Shown here piece after piece: positions 118 to 14,353 of a DNA stretch of 38,925 nucleotides; the stretch's first letter is position 1, and each line of letters starts with the position of its first letter. Origin of the DNA: Ottowia flava (GTDB lineage Bacteria > Pseudomonadota > Gammaproteobacteria > Burkholderiales > Burkholderiaceae_C). Under the pieces are notes generated by a model. That model was not told the origin of the DNA. It searched no databases and saw nothing but the letters and a program-made list of their open reading frames with translations. Position numbers and translations under genes: made by a program. Location of the stretch: the NCBI RefSeq assembly GCF_008017535.1, contig NZ_VRUA01000027.1, positions 1-38,925 of the forward strand, written 5' to 3'.

Positions 118-1578
118 ATGATCTCTAGAGAACCCACAATTGAGCGCCTGCAAACCGCGAGCGACCTGCTGTTGACGCCGTTCGGCTTGAGCGAAGCCGA
201 TTTGGCCAAAACCTTGGGTGTTATCGCACAGCACCGTGTCGATGACGCCGACCTGTACTTTCAGTACACGCGTGCCGAAGGCTGGAGCCTGGAAGAAGGC
301 ATCGTCAAGACCGGTAGCTTCTCTATCGACCAGGGCGTGGGGGTGCGAGCAGTGGCCGGCGAGAAGACCGCTTTCGCCTATTCCGACGATATTTCCCTTG
401 CTTCGCTGACCGATGCCGCGCAAACCGTGCGCGCCATCAGCAGCGCCGCACAAGCCGGACGCGTCAAGGTGCCCAAGCGTCAGCTCGCGCGCGGGCGCAA
501 GCTCTATCCCGGTCTGGATCCTATCGGCACGCTCGACAGCACGGCCAAGGTGCAGCTGCTGGAGCGTGTGGAGAAGCTCGCGCGCGCCAAGGATCCGCGT
601 GTGGTGCAAGTCATGGCAGGCTTAGCGAGCGAATACGACGTGGTGTTGGTCGCCCGTCTGGACGGGACGCTGGCCGCCGACGTGCGCCCGCTGGTGCGCG
701 TGTCGGTCACCGTGATTGCCGAGCAGAACGGCCGGCGCGAGATCGGCTCCTACGGCGGCGGTGGCCGCTTCGGCTTGGCGTACTTCGATGATGCGCTGCT
801 CGGCCGCTATGTCGACGAAGCCGTGTCGGCCGCCCTCACCAATCTGGAATCCCGCCCTGCGCCCGCAGGCGAAATGACCGTGGTGCTTGGCCCAGGTTGG
901 CCGGGCGTGCTCTTGCACGAAGCCGTGGGCCACGGGCTGGAAGGCGACTTCAACCGGAAGGGCTCCAGCGCGTTCACCGGTCGCATTGGTCAGCGCGTGG
1001 CCGCCAAGGGCGTCACCGTGCTGGATGATGGCACCATCACCGACCGCCGCGGCAGCCTGAACGTGGACGACGAAGGCCACGCCACGCAAAAGAACGTGCT
1101 GATCGAAGACGGCATCCTGAAGGGCTACATTCAGGACGCCATGAACGCGCGCCTGATGGGCGTCAAACCGACCGGCAACGGCCGGCGCGAAAGCTACGCC
1201 CACATTCCCATGCCGCGCATGACCAACACTTATATGTTGGGCGGTGACCGCGACCCGCGCGAGATCGTGGCCAGCATCAAGAAGGGCTTGTACGCCACCA
1301 ACTTCGGTGGCGGCCAGGTCGACATCACCAGCGGCAAGTTCGTCTTCTCGGCCAGCGAAGCCTATTGGGTGGAAAACGGCAAGATCCAGTACCCCGTCAA
1401 GGGCGCGACCATCGTCGGCAGCGGCCCCGAATCGCTCAAGAAGATCAGCATGATCGGCAACGACATGGCGCTGGATTCGGGCGTGGGCACTTGCGGCAAG
1501 GAAGGCCAGAGTGTGCCCGTGGGCGTCGGCCAGCCGACCTTGCGCATCGATGGCCTGACGGTGGGCGGCACAGCCTGA
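118..1578 (+). CDS. tldD: Metalloprotease TldD
   Basis: The 486-residue product is full length for TldD, which with PmbA/TldE forms a cytoplasmic zinc protease that trims unfolded or modified peptides. The TldD hallmark HEAVGH, followed by GLEGD, begins at residue 267 and supplies metal-binding histidines and the catalytic glutamate. The C-terminal GTCGKEGQ segment contains Cys459, matching the cysteine ligand known in TldD. The N-terminal and C-terminal domains both read continuously. The start [11 protein letters not shown] fits what I recall of Comamonadaceae homologues, but no ribosome binding site precedes it and a -10-like TAAAAT sits six bases upstream, so initiation may be leaderless. 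No pmbA partner is in the window, which is normal because the two genes are usually unlinked. Confidence 0.96.
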
Positions 1579-1662: not shown

Positions 1663-1722
1663 AAAAGCGACTTGGGCTGGTGCCGCGCTCGACCCGTCAC
1701 ACGCGGCCTATGCCGTGTGTGC

Positions 1723-1728
1723 TACAGT
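1723..1728 (+). promoter_or_regulatory. Candidate -10 element of the aroG leader
   Basis: TACAGT sits in GCTACAGTCACTG, with nine bases between it and the leader peptide ATG. That is the same spacing as at the DUF3426 and UbiH-family genes. A transcript starting 7-10 bases downstream would begin at or next to the AUG. No good -35 is visible. Confidence 0.45.
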
Positions 1729-1737
1729 CACTGGGTC

Positions 1738-1809
1738 ATGAACAAGCGCATCGCTTTCGGTTTTTACTTTTGGTTCTCGGTCCCAGGCGGACGAGAGGCC
1801 CAGGTGTAA
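1738..1809 (+). CDS. aroG leader peptide (aromatic amino acid attenuator)
   Basis: This is a 23-codon reading frame, MNKRIAFGFYFWFSVPGGR followed by EAQV and TAA. Residues 7-13 are FGFYFWF: four Phe, one Tyr and one Trp in seven codons, the three end products of the pathway that the downstream gene begins. A leader peptide of this kind senses charged tRNA: stalling at these codons would favour an antiterminator. The terminator hairpin starts 25 bases after the stop, and the DAHP synthase start is at 1923. No Shine-Dalgarno sequence is present, and a -10-like TACAGT is only nine bases upstream, so translation may start on a leaderless transcript. The frame happens to be open into aroG, but the leader stops by its own TAA. 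No expression evidence exists here. Confidence 0.8.
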   Translation: MNKRIAFGFYFWFSVPGGREAQV

Positions 1810-1834
1810 GCACAGCGAACAGCGACCTCCCGAC

Positions 1835-1868
1835 AAAACCGCCGCAGCGAAAGCCCGGCGGTTTTTTT
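1835..1868 (+). terminator. Attenuator terminator before aroG
   Basis: AAAACCGCCG at 1835-1844 pairs perfectly with CGGCGGTTTT at 1856-1865 around an 11-base loop. A run of seven T (1862-1868) completes a Rho-independent terminator. It lies between the leader peptide and aroG on the same strand, so it would end transcription before the gene. GGCGG at 1786-1790, inside the leader peptide frame, could pair with CCGCC at 1839-1843 and act as an antiterminator. Confidence 0.85.
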
Positions 1869-1922
1869 GTGCCCGACCCGCGCAAACCCGCGCCCAACCG
1901 AGTCAATGAAGGAAGACCCCCG

Positions 1923-3047
1923 ATGAACGCCAAAGCTGTGCAAGACATGGATATCCGCCCCTCGACACCCGAGCGCACCAGCCAGACCGACGACGAGCGC
2001 ATCAAGGACATCACCGTGCTTCCCCCGCCAGACCACCTGATCCGCTTCTTCCCCATCCGCGGAACACCCGTGGAATCGCTGATTTCCAGCACCCGCAAAT
2101 CGATCCGCAAGATCCTCAACGGCAAGGACGACCGCCTGCTGGTCATCATCGGCCCGTGCTCGATCCACGACCCCGAAGCCGCGCTGGACTACGCGCGCCG
2201 TCTGAAGCCCTTGCGCGACCAATACGCCGACACGCTGGAAGTGGTGATGCGCGTCTACTTCGAAAAGCCCCGCACCACCGTCGGCTGGAAGGGCCTGATC
2301 AACGATCCGTATCTAGACGAAAGCTACCGCATCGACGAAGGCCTGCGCATTGCGCGCCAGCTGCTGATCGACATCAACCGCATCGGTCTGCCGGCGGGCA
2401 GCGAATTCCTGGACGTGATCTCGCCGCAGTACATTGCCGATCTGATCAGCTGGGGCGCCATCGGCGCGCGCACCACCGAAAGCCAGGTCCACCGCGAACT
2501 GGCCAGCGGCCTGTCGGCACCGATCGGCTTCAAGAACGGCACCGACGGCAACATCCGCATCGCCACCGACGCGATCCAGGCGGCCGCGCGCGGGCACCAC
2601 TTCCTGTCGGTGCACAAGAACGGGCAGGTCTCCATCGTGCACACCGACGGCAACAAGGACTGCCACGTCATCCTGCGTGGCGGCAAGGCGCCCAATTACG
2701 ACGCCGAAAGCGTGGGCGCGGCCTGCAAGGACCTGAGCGCCGCCAAGCTGCCCGCCACGCTGATGGTCGATTGCAGCCACGCCAACAGCCTGAAACAGCA
2801 CGAAAAGCAGCTGGACGTGGCGCGCGACGTGGCCGCGCAGGTGGCCGGTGGCTCGCACCAGATCTTCGGCGTGATGGTGGAAAGCCACATCCACGCAGGC
2901 GCCCAGAAATTCACGCCAGGCAAGGACGACGTCGGCGCGCTGGAATACGGCAAGAGCATCACCGACGCCTGCCTGGGCTGGGACGGCTCGCTGGAGCTGT
3001 TGCAGGTGCTGGACGAGGCGGTGCGCACACGCCGTCAGCGCCGCTGA
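1923..3047 (+). CDS. aroG: 3-deoxy-7-phosphoheptulonate (DAHP) synthase, class I
   Basis: The 374-residue protein condenses phosphoenolpyruvate and erythrose 4-phosphate, the first step of the shikimate pathway. Class I (AroFGH-type) motifs are clear: LLVIIGPCSIHDP, MRVYFEKPRTTVGWKGL, GARTTESQVHRELASGLS, GFKNGTDGN, LMVDCSHANSLK and GVMVESHIHAG. The chosen ATG has AAGGAAG eight bases upstream. Longer in-frame upstream sequence is leader and terminator, not protein. The N-terminal extension before KDITVLPPP matches regulated members that bind aromatic amino acids, but which of Phe, Tyr or Trp inhibits it cannot be read from sequence. Transcription is probably controlled by the leader peptide and terminator directly upstream, whose sensor codons cover all three amino acids. 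Confidence 0.95.
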   Translation: MNAKAVQDMDIRPSTPERTSQTDDERIKDITVLPPPDHLIRFFPIRGTPVESLISSTRKSIRKILNGKDDRLLVIIGPCSIHDPEAALDYARRLKPLRDQYADTLEVVMRVYFEKPRTTVGWKGLINDPYLDESYRIDEGLRIARQLLIDINRIGLPAGSEFLDVISPQYIADLISWGAIGARTTESQVHRELASGLSAPIGFKNGTDGNIRIATDAIQAAARGHHFLSVHKNGQVSIVHTDGNKDCHVILRGGKAPNYDAESVGAACKDLSAAKLPATLMVDCSHANSLKQHEKQLDVARDVAAQVAGGSHQIFGVMVESHIHAGAQKFTPGKDDVGALEYGKSITDACLGWDGSLELLQVLDEAVRTRRQRR

Positions 3048-12967: not shown

Positions 12968-14353
12968 ATGAGCCTGATCACGCGCTGCCCGACCTGCTCG
13001 ACGCTGTTTAAGGTCGTCGCGGACCAGTTGCGCATCTCCGGCGGCTGGGTGCGCTGCGGGCACTGCCAGGACGTCTTTGACGCCTCTGCGCATCTGATTC
13101 CGTACGAGGAAAGCCGCGCCCTGGCGCAGGCGCAGCAGGTGGAGGTGCCACCGCCTCCGCCACCACCGCCACCGCCGCCACCGCCGCCACCGCCACCGCC
13201 ACCGCCACCACCACCGCCACCACCACCACCACCACCACCACCACCACCACCACCACCACCACCACCACCGGCGGTCGAGCGGAATCAAGAGCAGGCGCCT
13301 GAGTTTGCGGCTGCGACGGCCCCTGCTGTCCTGTCGGGGCAGCAAGACCCCTTGGCGGCCGCGCTCGACATTCCGGATGCGGCGACGCTGCTGCGCCGTC
13401 CAGCGGCGGACGGTCGCGGCGCCGCGGAGCCGGTGCCAGCCGCTGCGCCAACGCTGCCGCAGGAACTCGAGGCTTGGCGCGAAGCGCGCGCGCAGGCGCG
13501 CGGCGGGATGCCGACCGAGGCTCCCCTTGCCCCGCCGCGGTCATGGCCGGCGCCGGTGGACGACACGACACGGCCGAGCCCGCTTTCGCCGAATGAGCGC
13601 ATGGCGGACGCTGACGCTCAGCTGTCTGCGGGCAACCCCGCGAAATACAGGCCTGCCGCAGTGGACGATGCCGCCGACGCACCGTTCGGGCCGACGGGCG
13701 CGCCCGTCGAGTCGCTGGTCGGCAGCCCAGTGGACTTCGTGCTGAGCGACATGGGCCGCTGGCCGGGTGGCCTGGACGACGGTGGCTCGGCGGACTCCCC
13801 GCCCTTGCGGCGCGATGGCGCCGCCACCGAACCCGCACCATCGTTCGTCGCTGCGGCAGAGCGGCGCGCGTTCTGGCGCTCACCGCCGATGCGGTTGACG
13901 CTGGGCCTGGGCGCACTGGTGCTGGTGCTGGCGCTGTTGCTGCAAGTCGGGCTCAGTCGGCGCAGCTGGCTGGCAGCCCATGTCCCCGCGCTGGCACCGG
14001 CGTTGGTCTCGCTGTGCCAGCCATTGGGCTGCTCGGTGCCGCCGTACCGTGATCTGGATGCGATCATCATCGACAACTCGGCTTTCAACCGCAGCGGCCC
14101 ATCGTCGTTCCGTTTCACCGTCACCCTGCGCAACCAGTCGGGGGTGCCGGTGGCGACGCCGGCCCTCGAATTGACCCTGACCGATGCGCTGGAGCAGCCC
14201 GTGGTGCGGCGCGTGGTCGCGCCCAGCGAGCTGAATGCGCCTGCGACGCTTGCAGCGCGTGGCGAATTCGCCGGCGCGAACGCGCTGGCGCTGGCCGGCG
14301 TTGACAACGCGAGTGCCATCACGGGTTACCGGTTGATGGCTTTTTATCCCTGA
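12968..14353 (+). CDS. Zinc-ribbon and DUF3426 membrane protein with polyproline tract
   Basis: The 461-residue protein starts with an MJ0042-type zinc ribbon, with cysteines at 7, 10, 30 and 33 (CPTC...RCGHC). Residues 61-101 are 41 consecutive prolines. A low-complexity Ala/Pro-rich cytoplasmic region follows, then one transmembrane helix at about 308-329 (MRLTLGLGALVLVLALLLQV) and a C-terminal DUF3426 domain (residues of about 350-461, with FRFTVTLRNQSGVPVATPALELTLTDA). Proteins of this architecture are common in betaproteobacteria and their role is not known to me. The proline run needs EF-P to be translated and would be a stiff rod between ribbon and membrane. It probably has its own leaderless promoter after prmA. 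Confidence 0.88.
   Translation: MSLITRCPTCSTLFKVVADQLRISGGWVRCGHCQDVFDASAHLIPYEESRALAQAQQVEVPPPPPPPPPPPPPPPPPPPPPPPPPPPPPPPPPPPPPPPPPAVERNQEQAPEFAAATAPAVLSGQQDPLAAALDIPDAATLLRRPAADGRGAAEPVPAAAPTLPQELEAWREARAQARGGMPTEAPLAPPRSWPAPVDDTTRPSPLSPNERMADADAQLSAGNPAKYRPAAVDDAADAPFGPTGAPVESLVGSPVDFVLSDMGRWPGGLDDGGSADSPPLRRDGAATEPAPSFVAAAERRAFWRSPPMRLTLGLGALVLVLALLLQVGLSRRSWLAAHVPALAPALVSLCQPLGCSVPPYRDLDAIIIDNSAFNRSGPSSFRFTVTLRNQSGVPVATPALELTLTDALEQPVVRRVVAPSELNAPATLAARGEFAGANALALAGVDNASAITGYRLMAFYP
13148..13270 (+). repeat. Proline-codon microsatellite, including (CCA)17
   Basis: The tract is 41 consecutive CCN codons: mixed CCA, CCG and CCT at first, then seventeen perfect CCA triplets from 13217 to 13267, and a final CCG. 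Slippage would change the number of prolines without shifting the frame. Sequencing or assembly error in length is also possible. Confidence 0.9.

What the first reader, a model, noticed from the sequence alone, without database searches (positions are those of the whole stretch)
1723..1925. Attenuator with an FGFYFWF leader peptide before DAHP synthase
Seen: a 23-codon frame with four Phe, one Tyr and one Trp in seven codons, its own stop, a perfect 10-bp stem with T7, and a candidate antiterminator pairing (GGCGG 1786-1790 with CCGCC 1839-1843), all before aroG. Known: amino acid operons use such leaders to sense tRNA charging, usually for one amino acid. Inferred: this leader senses all three aromatic amino acids at once, which would make the first shikimate step respond to shortage of any of them. 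I do not recall a description for betaproteobacterial aroG.
Basis: partly seen in the sequence, partly recalled or inferred. Interest (0 to 1): 0.82.

Follow-up and report, generated by a model that had tools for sequence, protein, structure and literature searches.

The report
Aromatic leader-peptide attenuator before aroG
Ahead of the gene for the first enzyme of aromatic amino acid synthesis, this bacterium carries a tiny gene rich in phenylalanine, tyrosine and tryptophan codons plus an RNA on/off switch; related bacteria carry it too, so it most likely lets the cell make more aromatic amino acids when they run short.

Summary
Of 80 named relatives, 63 showed leader and terminator (2 more recovered later). 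A covariance model found 131 distinct matches above its score gap (window included; 2 contain a training row), in the order, elsewhere in the class and in at least one other class of the phylum; all 131 lie before a DAHP synthase. GGCGG is kept in different reading frames, and one terminator base covaries with both its antiterminator and its terminator partner: RNA, not peptide, is conserved there. Aromatic codons sit where a stalled ribosome would free the antiterminator. Best reading: ribosome-mediated transcription attenuation sensing aromatic tRNA charging. 89 of 156 distinct leaders hold Phe, Tyr and Trp, the rest lack one or two; in the tested Corynebacterium analogue Tyr had no effect, so sensing of all three is inferred. 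In 93 of 164 leaders (the window among them) a -10 element ends 6-10 nt before ATG, so the leader is probably leaderless there; this was not met in 22 leaders outside the order. Known mechanism, new widespread setting; not found in Rfam, NCBIfam or the papers searched.

The parts
118..1578 (+). tldD (upstream neighbour, not part of the switch)
   Evidence: Pfam PmbA_TldD domains
1720..1728 (+). extended -10 element TGC-TACAGT; 9 nt lie between it and the leader ATG, so transcription is predicted to start at or within a few nt of the ATG
   Evidence: sequence; motif TGTGCTACATT at this place in many relatives; start site not mapped
1738..1809 (+). leader ORF MNKRIAFGFYFWFSVPGGREAQV, no Shine-Dalgarno seen
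   Evidence: conserved
1756..1776 (+). regulatory codon run Phe-Gly-Phe-Tyr-Phe-Trp-Phe
   Evidence: ribosome-position model
1774..1783 (+). region 1: core of the 5' arm of the protector hairpin (TTCTC, G bulge, GTCC), masked by a ribosome stalled on the aromatic codons
1786..1790 (+). region 2: antiterminator 5' arm GGCGG, inside the leader ORF
1789..1797 (+). core of the 3' arm of the protector hairpin (GGAC + GAGAG)
1835..1844 (+). region 3: terminator 5' arm AAAACCGCCG; its CCGCC (1839-1843) is also the antiterminator 3' arm
1856..1868 (+). region 4: terminator 3' arm CGGCGG + T7 tract
1909..1915 (+). Shine-Dalgarno-like AAGGAAG of aroG
1923..3047 (+). DAHP synthase (AroFGH type), the controlled gene
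   Evidence: Pfam DAHP_synth_1, E 6.9e-95

Best explanation
A ribosome-mediated (trpL/pheL-type) transcription attenuator of DAHP synthase. A short, probably leaderless leader ORF is translated while it is transcribed. If Phe-, Tyr- or Trp-tRNA is poorly charged, the ribosome stalls on the aromatic codons and masks region 1 (1774-1783); GGCGG (1786-1790) is then free to pair with CCGCC (1839-1843) before the terminator 3' arm is made, and RNA polymerase reads on into aroG. If all are charged, the ribosome moves over GGCGG or releases and the protector hairpin re-forms, so 1835-1865 folds as a terminator and transcription stops near 1868. Shown here by comparison: leader, terminator and antiterminator are conserved and covary. 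Modelled: the ribosome geometry. Inferred: translation of the leader, stalling, termination, and that each of the three amino acids counts.
For: (1) Leader (at least 4 of 8 aromatic) + terminator in 64 of 81 loci (80 named relatives + window); 2 of the other 17 recovered later. (2) 131 distinct model matches, all upstream of a DAHP synthase: 104 in the order incl. the window (E<=7e-6), 4 elsewhere in the class, 18 new in the phylum draw (E<=1e-4), 5 in named genomes; only 2 contain a training row letter for letter. (3) GGCGG in 61 of 64 leaders: frame 0 only in 31, frame 2 only in 28, two copies in 2; outside the order 20 of 22, frame 2 in 19 and frame 1 in 1. RNA is conserved, not peptide. 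(4) The base after CCGCC covaries with both partners: antiterminator CG35 UA13 UG4 AU2 GC1 unpaired 9, terminator GC45 AU16 UA2 CG1; repeated on 101 further rows. (5) Outer protector stem 87.5% of cells paired, 4 of 5 pairs with two-sided changes. (6) With the ribosome's A site on an aromatic codon the antiterminator has P>=0.5 for 236/276 Phe, 100/107 Tyr, 51/51 Trp codons; with the ribosome at the stop in 0/64. (7) Phe codons before the last are TTT 157:TTC 55 in leaders, 79:418 in the aroG genes. (8) trpE and pheA of the same genome show no leader with more than 3 of 8 aromatics, and the model matches this genome once.
Against: No transcript, termination or translation data. Covariation rests mainly on one variable flank pair per stem; the GGCGG/CCGCC core hardly varies. 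The flank pair is unpaired in 9/64 and 29/99; in the second set the next pair is unpaired in 25/99 and the pair on the other side of GGCGG in 76/97. With everything transcribed the terminator wins nearly always, so antitermination must be kinetic (five loci printed). The stop-codon result assumes that GGCGG behind the ribosome is unavailable. At the last aromatic codon the antiterminator is favoured in 41/64 only; without a ribosome in 33/64, so the untranslated state is unclear. Protector hairpins are only modestly better than shuffles (mean z -0.98; 15/64 in the best 5%; positive z in 10 of 11 Burkholderia-type leaders), and a register slid by 2 does nearly as well on covariation (0.152 against 0.170). 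Exceptions: L039 (no antiterminator by model), L001/L021/L039 without exact GGCGG, L133/L134/L205 with 3, 1 and 1 aromatics in 8 codons. 296 of 399 order genomes gave no strong match. Three weak matches with the same layout stand before another gene. Tyr codons were without effect in the C. glutamicum analogue.
Confidence: 0.92

Rival explanations
1. The attenuator is real but in effect a Phe sensor (as reported for C. glutamicum aroR-aroF); Tyr and Trp codons are passengers.
For: Phe is in all 156 distinct leaders, Tyr in 143, Trp in 93. The C. glutamicum Phe-Tyr-Phe leader responds to Phe limitation, not Tyr (PMC11802643 passage).
Against: Trp is kept in 93 of 156 leaders although TGG is two or more changes from a Phe codon, and all 51 modelled Trp codons lie in the permissive window; all 22 leaders outside the order contain F, Y and W. 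In this genome trpE and pheA have no such leader of their own.
Confidence: 0.35
2. Nascent-peptide arrest (TnaC/SecM-like): the peptide itself senses free aromatic amino acids in the ribosome tunnel.
For: Aromatic-rich nascent chain; C-terminal residues look conserved within Comamonadaceae (SVPGGREA).
Against: The C-terminal conservation is GGCGG RNA read in different frames (PGGREA, PLADREG, PKAVE); order and number of aromatics vary; the stop codon lies 1 to 32 nt after GGCGG.
Confidence: 0.04
3. An ordinary terminator of tldD with a chance ORF; no regulation of aroG.
For: It lies between tldD and aroG; a terminator alone could end tldD transcripts.
Against: Conserved leader, its own -10 element and a covarying antiterminator; the gene downstream is a DAHP synthase in all 131 matches, down to 55% identity.
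Confidence: 0.02
4. A T-box or metabolite riboswitch.
For: Amino acid genes are controlled so in other phyla (general knowledge).
Against: No Rfam match at gathering thresholds in the window; no conserved aptamer beyond the hairpins in the alignment.
Confidence: 0.02

Closest known systems
Corynebacterium glutamicum aroR-aroF attenuator (Neshat et al. 2014, not read; seen through passages of PMC11802643 and PMC4046766)
   Same: Leader peptide with Phe-Tyr-Phe before a DAHP synthase gene; read-through rises when Phe is limiting.
   Different: Actinobacterium; no Trp in the quoted run; Tyr without effect; no sequence relation tested here. The family here lies in Proteobacteria and holds Trp in 93 of 156 distinct leaders.
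Enterobacterial trpL and pheL (pheA, pheST) leaders (passage in PMC11802643) and ilv leaders (recalled)
   Same: Terminator/antiterminator with regulatory codons; ilv leaders sense three amino acids at once (recalled).
   Different: Target here is the common first step, not a branch; GGCGG lies inside the leader ORF in the window; leader probably leaderless.
Sinorhizobium meliloti trpL / rnTrpL (passages of PMC7298713 and PMC10117765)
   Same: Attenuator transcript that starts with the leader ATG.
   Different: Before trpE(G); also acts in trans, which is untested here.
uORFC-13-1 motif of Acholeplasma (PMC8632094 passage)
   Same: Candidate Phe-coding uORF with an apparent terminator before aroF (DAHP synthase).
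   Different: Other phylum, has an RBS, a U run coding at least one Phe; 24 sequences.

Membership tests
Ribosome-mediated amino-acid attenuators (trpL/pheL class) | Short leader ORF with a run of codons for the end product(s) | tested here: met
Ribosome-mediated amino-acid attenuators (trpL/pheL class) | Intrinsic terminator between leader and first gene | tested here: met
Ribosome-mediated amino-acid attenuators (trpL/pheL class) | Mutually exclusive antiterminator using the terminator 5' arm | tested here: met
   one base covaries with both partners
Ribosome-mediated amino-acid attenuators (trpL/pheL class) | Protector (1:2) hairpin whose 5' arm is masked by the stalled ribosome | tested here: inconclusive
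   outer stem 87.5% paired with two-sided changes, but mean z only -0.98 and weak in Burkholderia-type leaders
Ribosome-mediated amino-acid attenuators (trpL/pheL class) | Stall position frees the antiterminator; completed translation does not | tested here: inconclusive
   holds in a thermodynamic model with assumptions about masking; no experiment
Ribosome-mediated amino-acid attenuators (trpL/pheL class) | Read-through responds to charging of the cognate tRNAs | not testable with these tools
   needs bench work
Rfam leader families and T-box | Match at gathering score | tested here: not met
   0 matches in the window
Leaderless attenuator (rnTrpL-like) | Transcript starts at the leader ATG | tested here: inconclusive
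   -10 ends 6-10 nt before ATG in 93 of 164 leaders (mononucleotide shuffles: mean 6.4, max 11), 9 nt in the window; 0 of 22 leaders outside the order by the same rule; no start site mapped
Leaderless attenuator (rnTrpL-like) | Terminated RNA or peptide acts in trans | not testable with these tools
   needs bench work
Nascent-peptide arrest leaders (TnaC/SecM/Erm) | Conserved arrest residues of the peptide | tested here: not met
   C-terminal part conserved as RNA in different frames
C. glutamicum aroR-type attenuator | Common ancestry with aroR | not tested
   no Corynebacterium sequence compared

The most novel reading that the evidence does not exclude
An old, re-programmable three-input gate: one leader ORF, inherited with DAHP synthase across at least two proteobacterial classes, makes the entry step of the shikimate pathway respond to whichever of Phe-, Tyr- or Trp-tRNA is least charged; evolution swaps codons (FYW, FY, FW, F) to change the inputs while the RNA switch (GGCGG/CCGCC) stays fixed, even in shifted reading frames. 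Where the leader is leaderless, the terminated product would be a tiny mRNA that might, like rnTrpL, also act in trans.
Probability: 0.45. Interest if true: 0.7.

Novelty: new variant of a known kind. Interest (0 to 1): 0.58.

Why it matters
It describes a widespread cis-regulatory RNA without an Rfam match in the window or an NCBIfam match for three leaders, and offers a way in which bacteria of this group could tune the first shikimate step at RNA level. The natural set of leaders with different aromatic inputs on one conserved switch is a ready test bed for how many codons, and which, an attenuator needs. For strain engineering of aromatic compounds in Burkholderiales it marks a control point that acts on synthesis of the first enzyme.

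Tried and rejected
Rfam at gathering thresholds: no match. NCBIfam with three leader peptides (window, L058, L062): no family up to E 1. Simple scans listed neither the -10 nor the terminator. The global fold z-score (-1.80) and local protector z-scores (mean -0.98) are weak and I do not lean on them. The second DAHP synthase of the own genome (L082 read by eye) has no model match (one match in the genome). trpE and pheA there: no small ORF above 3 of 8 aromatics near the start (two of 3 of 8 near trpE). The idea that the C-terminus (GGREA) is a peptide motif was dropped after the frame comparison. Weak order matches: of 17 fetched (L135-L151, E 1.2e-4 to 0.0027), 1 (L147) lies before DAHP synthase and 16 do not.

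Rows dropped before counts: of 81 loci, L024 had 34 nt upstream, 12 had no leader (L031, L034, L036, L038, L042, L050, L051, L052, L053, L065, L074, L075) and 4 no terminator by my script (L054, L060, L068, L071); L060 and L071 were later matched by the model. In one search, L191 and L203 were missed by the leader script and read by eye; the GGCGG offsets printed there are wrong (slice error) and unused. L129 and L131 duplicate L100 and L088. A2 was made from 100 chosen loci, and holds one chance row (L116:265-394). The tree used 85 rows that I chose.

Full report
Observation. The window carries tldD (118-1578) and a DAHP synthase gene (1923-3047; Pfam DAHP_synth_1). Between them lies a 23-codon ORF at 1738-1809 whose codons 7-13 read FGFYFWF, and a hairpin AAAACCGCCG/CGGCGGTTTT at 1835-1865 that runs into T7 at 1862-1868. 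Such an aromatic run is rare by chance: the only other open stretch with 6 of 8 aromatics in six frames is a CCA repeat read as poly-Trp, and 40 simulated windows gave 0.025 on average.

Conservation. I fetched 80 named relatives of the DAHP synthase (capped at the best 80 of 591). With the window, 64 of 81 loci have an aromatic leader ORF (at least 4 of 8 residues) and a terminator that begins 14-48 nt after its stop; the 17 others are listed in Tried and rejected. Leaders include FYFWFSVPGGREA types (Comamonadaceae), FYFYFFWHLKPLADREG (Burkholderiaceae) and FFTGYFYFSNSNPKAVE (Oxalobacteraceae).

RNA, not peptide. GGCGG follows the aromatic codons in 61 of 64 leaders: frame 0 only (GGC GGA) in 31, frame 2 only (G GCG G) in 28, two copies in 2. 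In 61 of 64 the element begins 9-17 nt after the last aromatic codon. In four leaders (L009, L023, L025, L029) the stop codon follows GGCGGA at once and GAGG is still there after the stop. These columns are thus kept as RNA.

Covariation. In alignment A1 (64 rows) the antiterminator pairs in 97.1% of cells; the one freely varying pair is CG 35, UA 13, UG 4, AU 2, GC 1, unpaired 9, giving 16 two-sided changes against 4.6 in shuffles. Its 3' base pairs in the terminator as GC 45, AU 16, UA 2, CG 1, 19 two-sided changes against 4.0. One base changes together with two alternative partners, as expected for mutually exclusive stems; the core pairs hardly vary and say little. On 101 further model-aligned rows (one a chance match) the antiterminator, which the model does not contain, is 83.1% paired with 32 two-sided changes against 17.6; the flank pair is UA 40, CG 26, UG 4, unpaired 29; the next pair out is unpaired in 25 of 99, and the pair on the other side of GGCGG in 76 of 97. 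The terminator there is 98.4% paired, 52 two-sided changes against 15.3. The protector stem TTCTC/GAGAG is 87.5% paired, but a register slid by 2 does nearly as well on covariation and its folding energy is only modestly below shuffles.

Distribution. Covariance model R1 was run on 399 genomes drawn from the order: 136 had a match at E<=0.01, 103 a strong one (E<=7e-6; 104 hits, one genome with two), with a gap up to 1.2e-4. All 104, fetched as 106 loci with two duplicates, lie upstream of a DAHP synthase. A draw of 369 genomes from the class gave 4 strong hits outside the order, all before DAHP synthase; of the ten weaker ones only L210 was looked at and had none. A draw of 299 from the phylum gave 35 genomes with E<=1e-4: 17 already seen and 18 new (17 of another class or classes, 1 of this class); all 18 precede DAHP synthases of 55-61% identity, with leaders such as MITVATNYFWYFSYDSSLAAGGSRSI. 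For 14 of the 17 named loci without a detected element I searched the whole genome: 5 had a strong match; two were the L060/L071 loci that my script had missed, three (an Ideonella, two Cupriavidus) stand before another DAHP synthase paralog. The Polynucleobacter, Thauera, Azoarcus, Rhodocyclus and Methylotenera genomes tested had none. Of the 131 distinct hits in all, 2 contain a training row letter for letter, the window and L104. On a quick tree of 85 DAHP synthases the leader occurs on both sides of the midpoint root and the label needs 7 changes, 3 of them forced by well supported branches: this fits an old trait with losses but does not prove it.

Mechanism model. Masking RNA up to 13 nt beyond the first base of the A-site codon, the antiterminator has P>=0.5 before the 3' arm is made for 236/276 Phe, 100/107 Tyr and 51/51 Trp codons. 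Fifty leaders have all three amino acids before GGCGG; all three are permissive in 49 of these 50, or 48 with 11 or 15 nt. At the last aromatic codon alone it is 41 of 64, at the best aromatic codon 63 of 64, at the stop codon 0 of 64, the last by treating GGCGG behind the ribosome as unavailable. In the window codons 3-12 are permissive; the last Phe (codon 13) is borderline. With the full terminator made the terminator wins almost everywhere in the five loci printed, so the switch must be kinetic; without a ribosome the model is undecided (33/64).

Which amino acids. Of 156 distinct leaders, 89 have Phe, Tyr and Trp, 54 Phe+Tyr, 4 Phe+Trp, 9 Phe only. The 22 leaders outside the order or from the last new genome of the class all have the three; 20 of them have GGCGG, and the other two (L234, L235) have AGCGG opposite CCGCT (read by eye). 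A few leaders of one family group are nearly bare of aromatics (L133, L134, L205). Phe codons before the last one are TTT in 157 of 212, against 79 of 497 in the aroG genes; the last Phe codon is TTC in 39 of 64. In this genome trpE and pheA have no such leader and the model matches once, so the entry step seems the only place with this device. That each amino acid is sensed remains inference.

Leaderless start. In the window an extended -10 (TGC-TACAGT) ends 9 nt before the ATG. In 93 of 164 distinct leaders of the order a TAnnnT with at least 4 of 6 matches ends 6-10 nt before ATG (mononucleotide shuffles: mean 6.4, max 11); 32 have no such element and 39 have the best one further upstream, as in Burkholderiaceae and Oxalobacteraceae. 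Of the 93, 76 have the TGn extension and 72 a C just before the ATG. A Shine-Dalgarno-like match of 5 or more was found in 0 of 164 leaders, and before 16 of 64 aroG starts, whose positions are approximate. By the same rule 0 of 22 leaders outside the order have a near -10; boxes such as CTATATG 9-12 nt before ATG are seen there by eye only. No start site was mapped.

Known work, all from passages unless said otherwise. C. glutamicum aroR-aroF, Phe-Tyr-Phe leader, responds to Phe and not Tyr (PMC11802643, PMC4046766; the original paper was not read). A Phe uORF candidate before aroF in Acholeplasma, and an old hypothesis for E. coli aroF (PMC8632094; PMC2659441). Leaderless rnTrpL (PMC7298713, PMC10117765). 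Putative tyrA attenuators taken from a database, among them Bordetella (PMC1173090). The passages shown of PMC2965389, PMC5343134 and PMC3890552 name no proteobacterial aroG leader. Ten searches of the held library listed no description of this family; the proteobacterial attenuator survey of Vitreschak et al. 2004 (recalled) was not seen, so earlier mention cannot be excluded.

Verdict. A real, conserved attenuator of a known mechanistic kind in a new and widespread setting; the three-input claim is the part worth testing.

Noticed in passing
Only the L149 protein was scanned (Pfam: nothing above cut-off).
   Followed up: partly
L138 (G308, f22), about 230-430 of the oriented locus: Leader-like ORF with four Tyr in a row (a Leu-rich ORF in another frame) and a strong hairpin with T tract before a gene that looks like a GNAT acetyltransferase (by eye).
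   Followed up: no
L133, L134, L194, L205 (family f44): Leaders that have lost aromatic codons (3, 1, 4 and 1 of 8) while the terminator remains: natural loss of input, or another signal.
   Followed up: partly
L038, L042 (Cupriavidus) with L214, L213: Two DAHP synthases in one genome: the copy closer to the window's has no leader, the other has the attenuator.
   Followed up: partly
window 13201-13269: A CCA/CCG repeat of about 65 bases, read as poly-Trp on the other strand.
   Followed up: no
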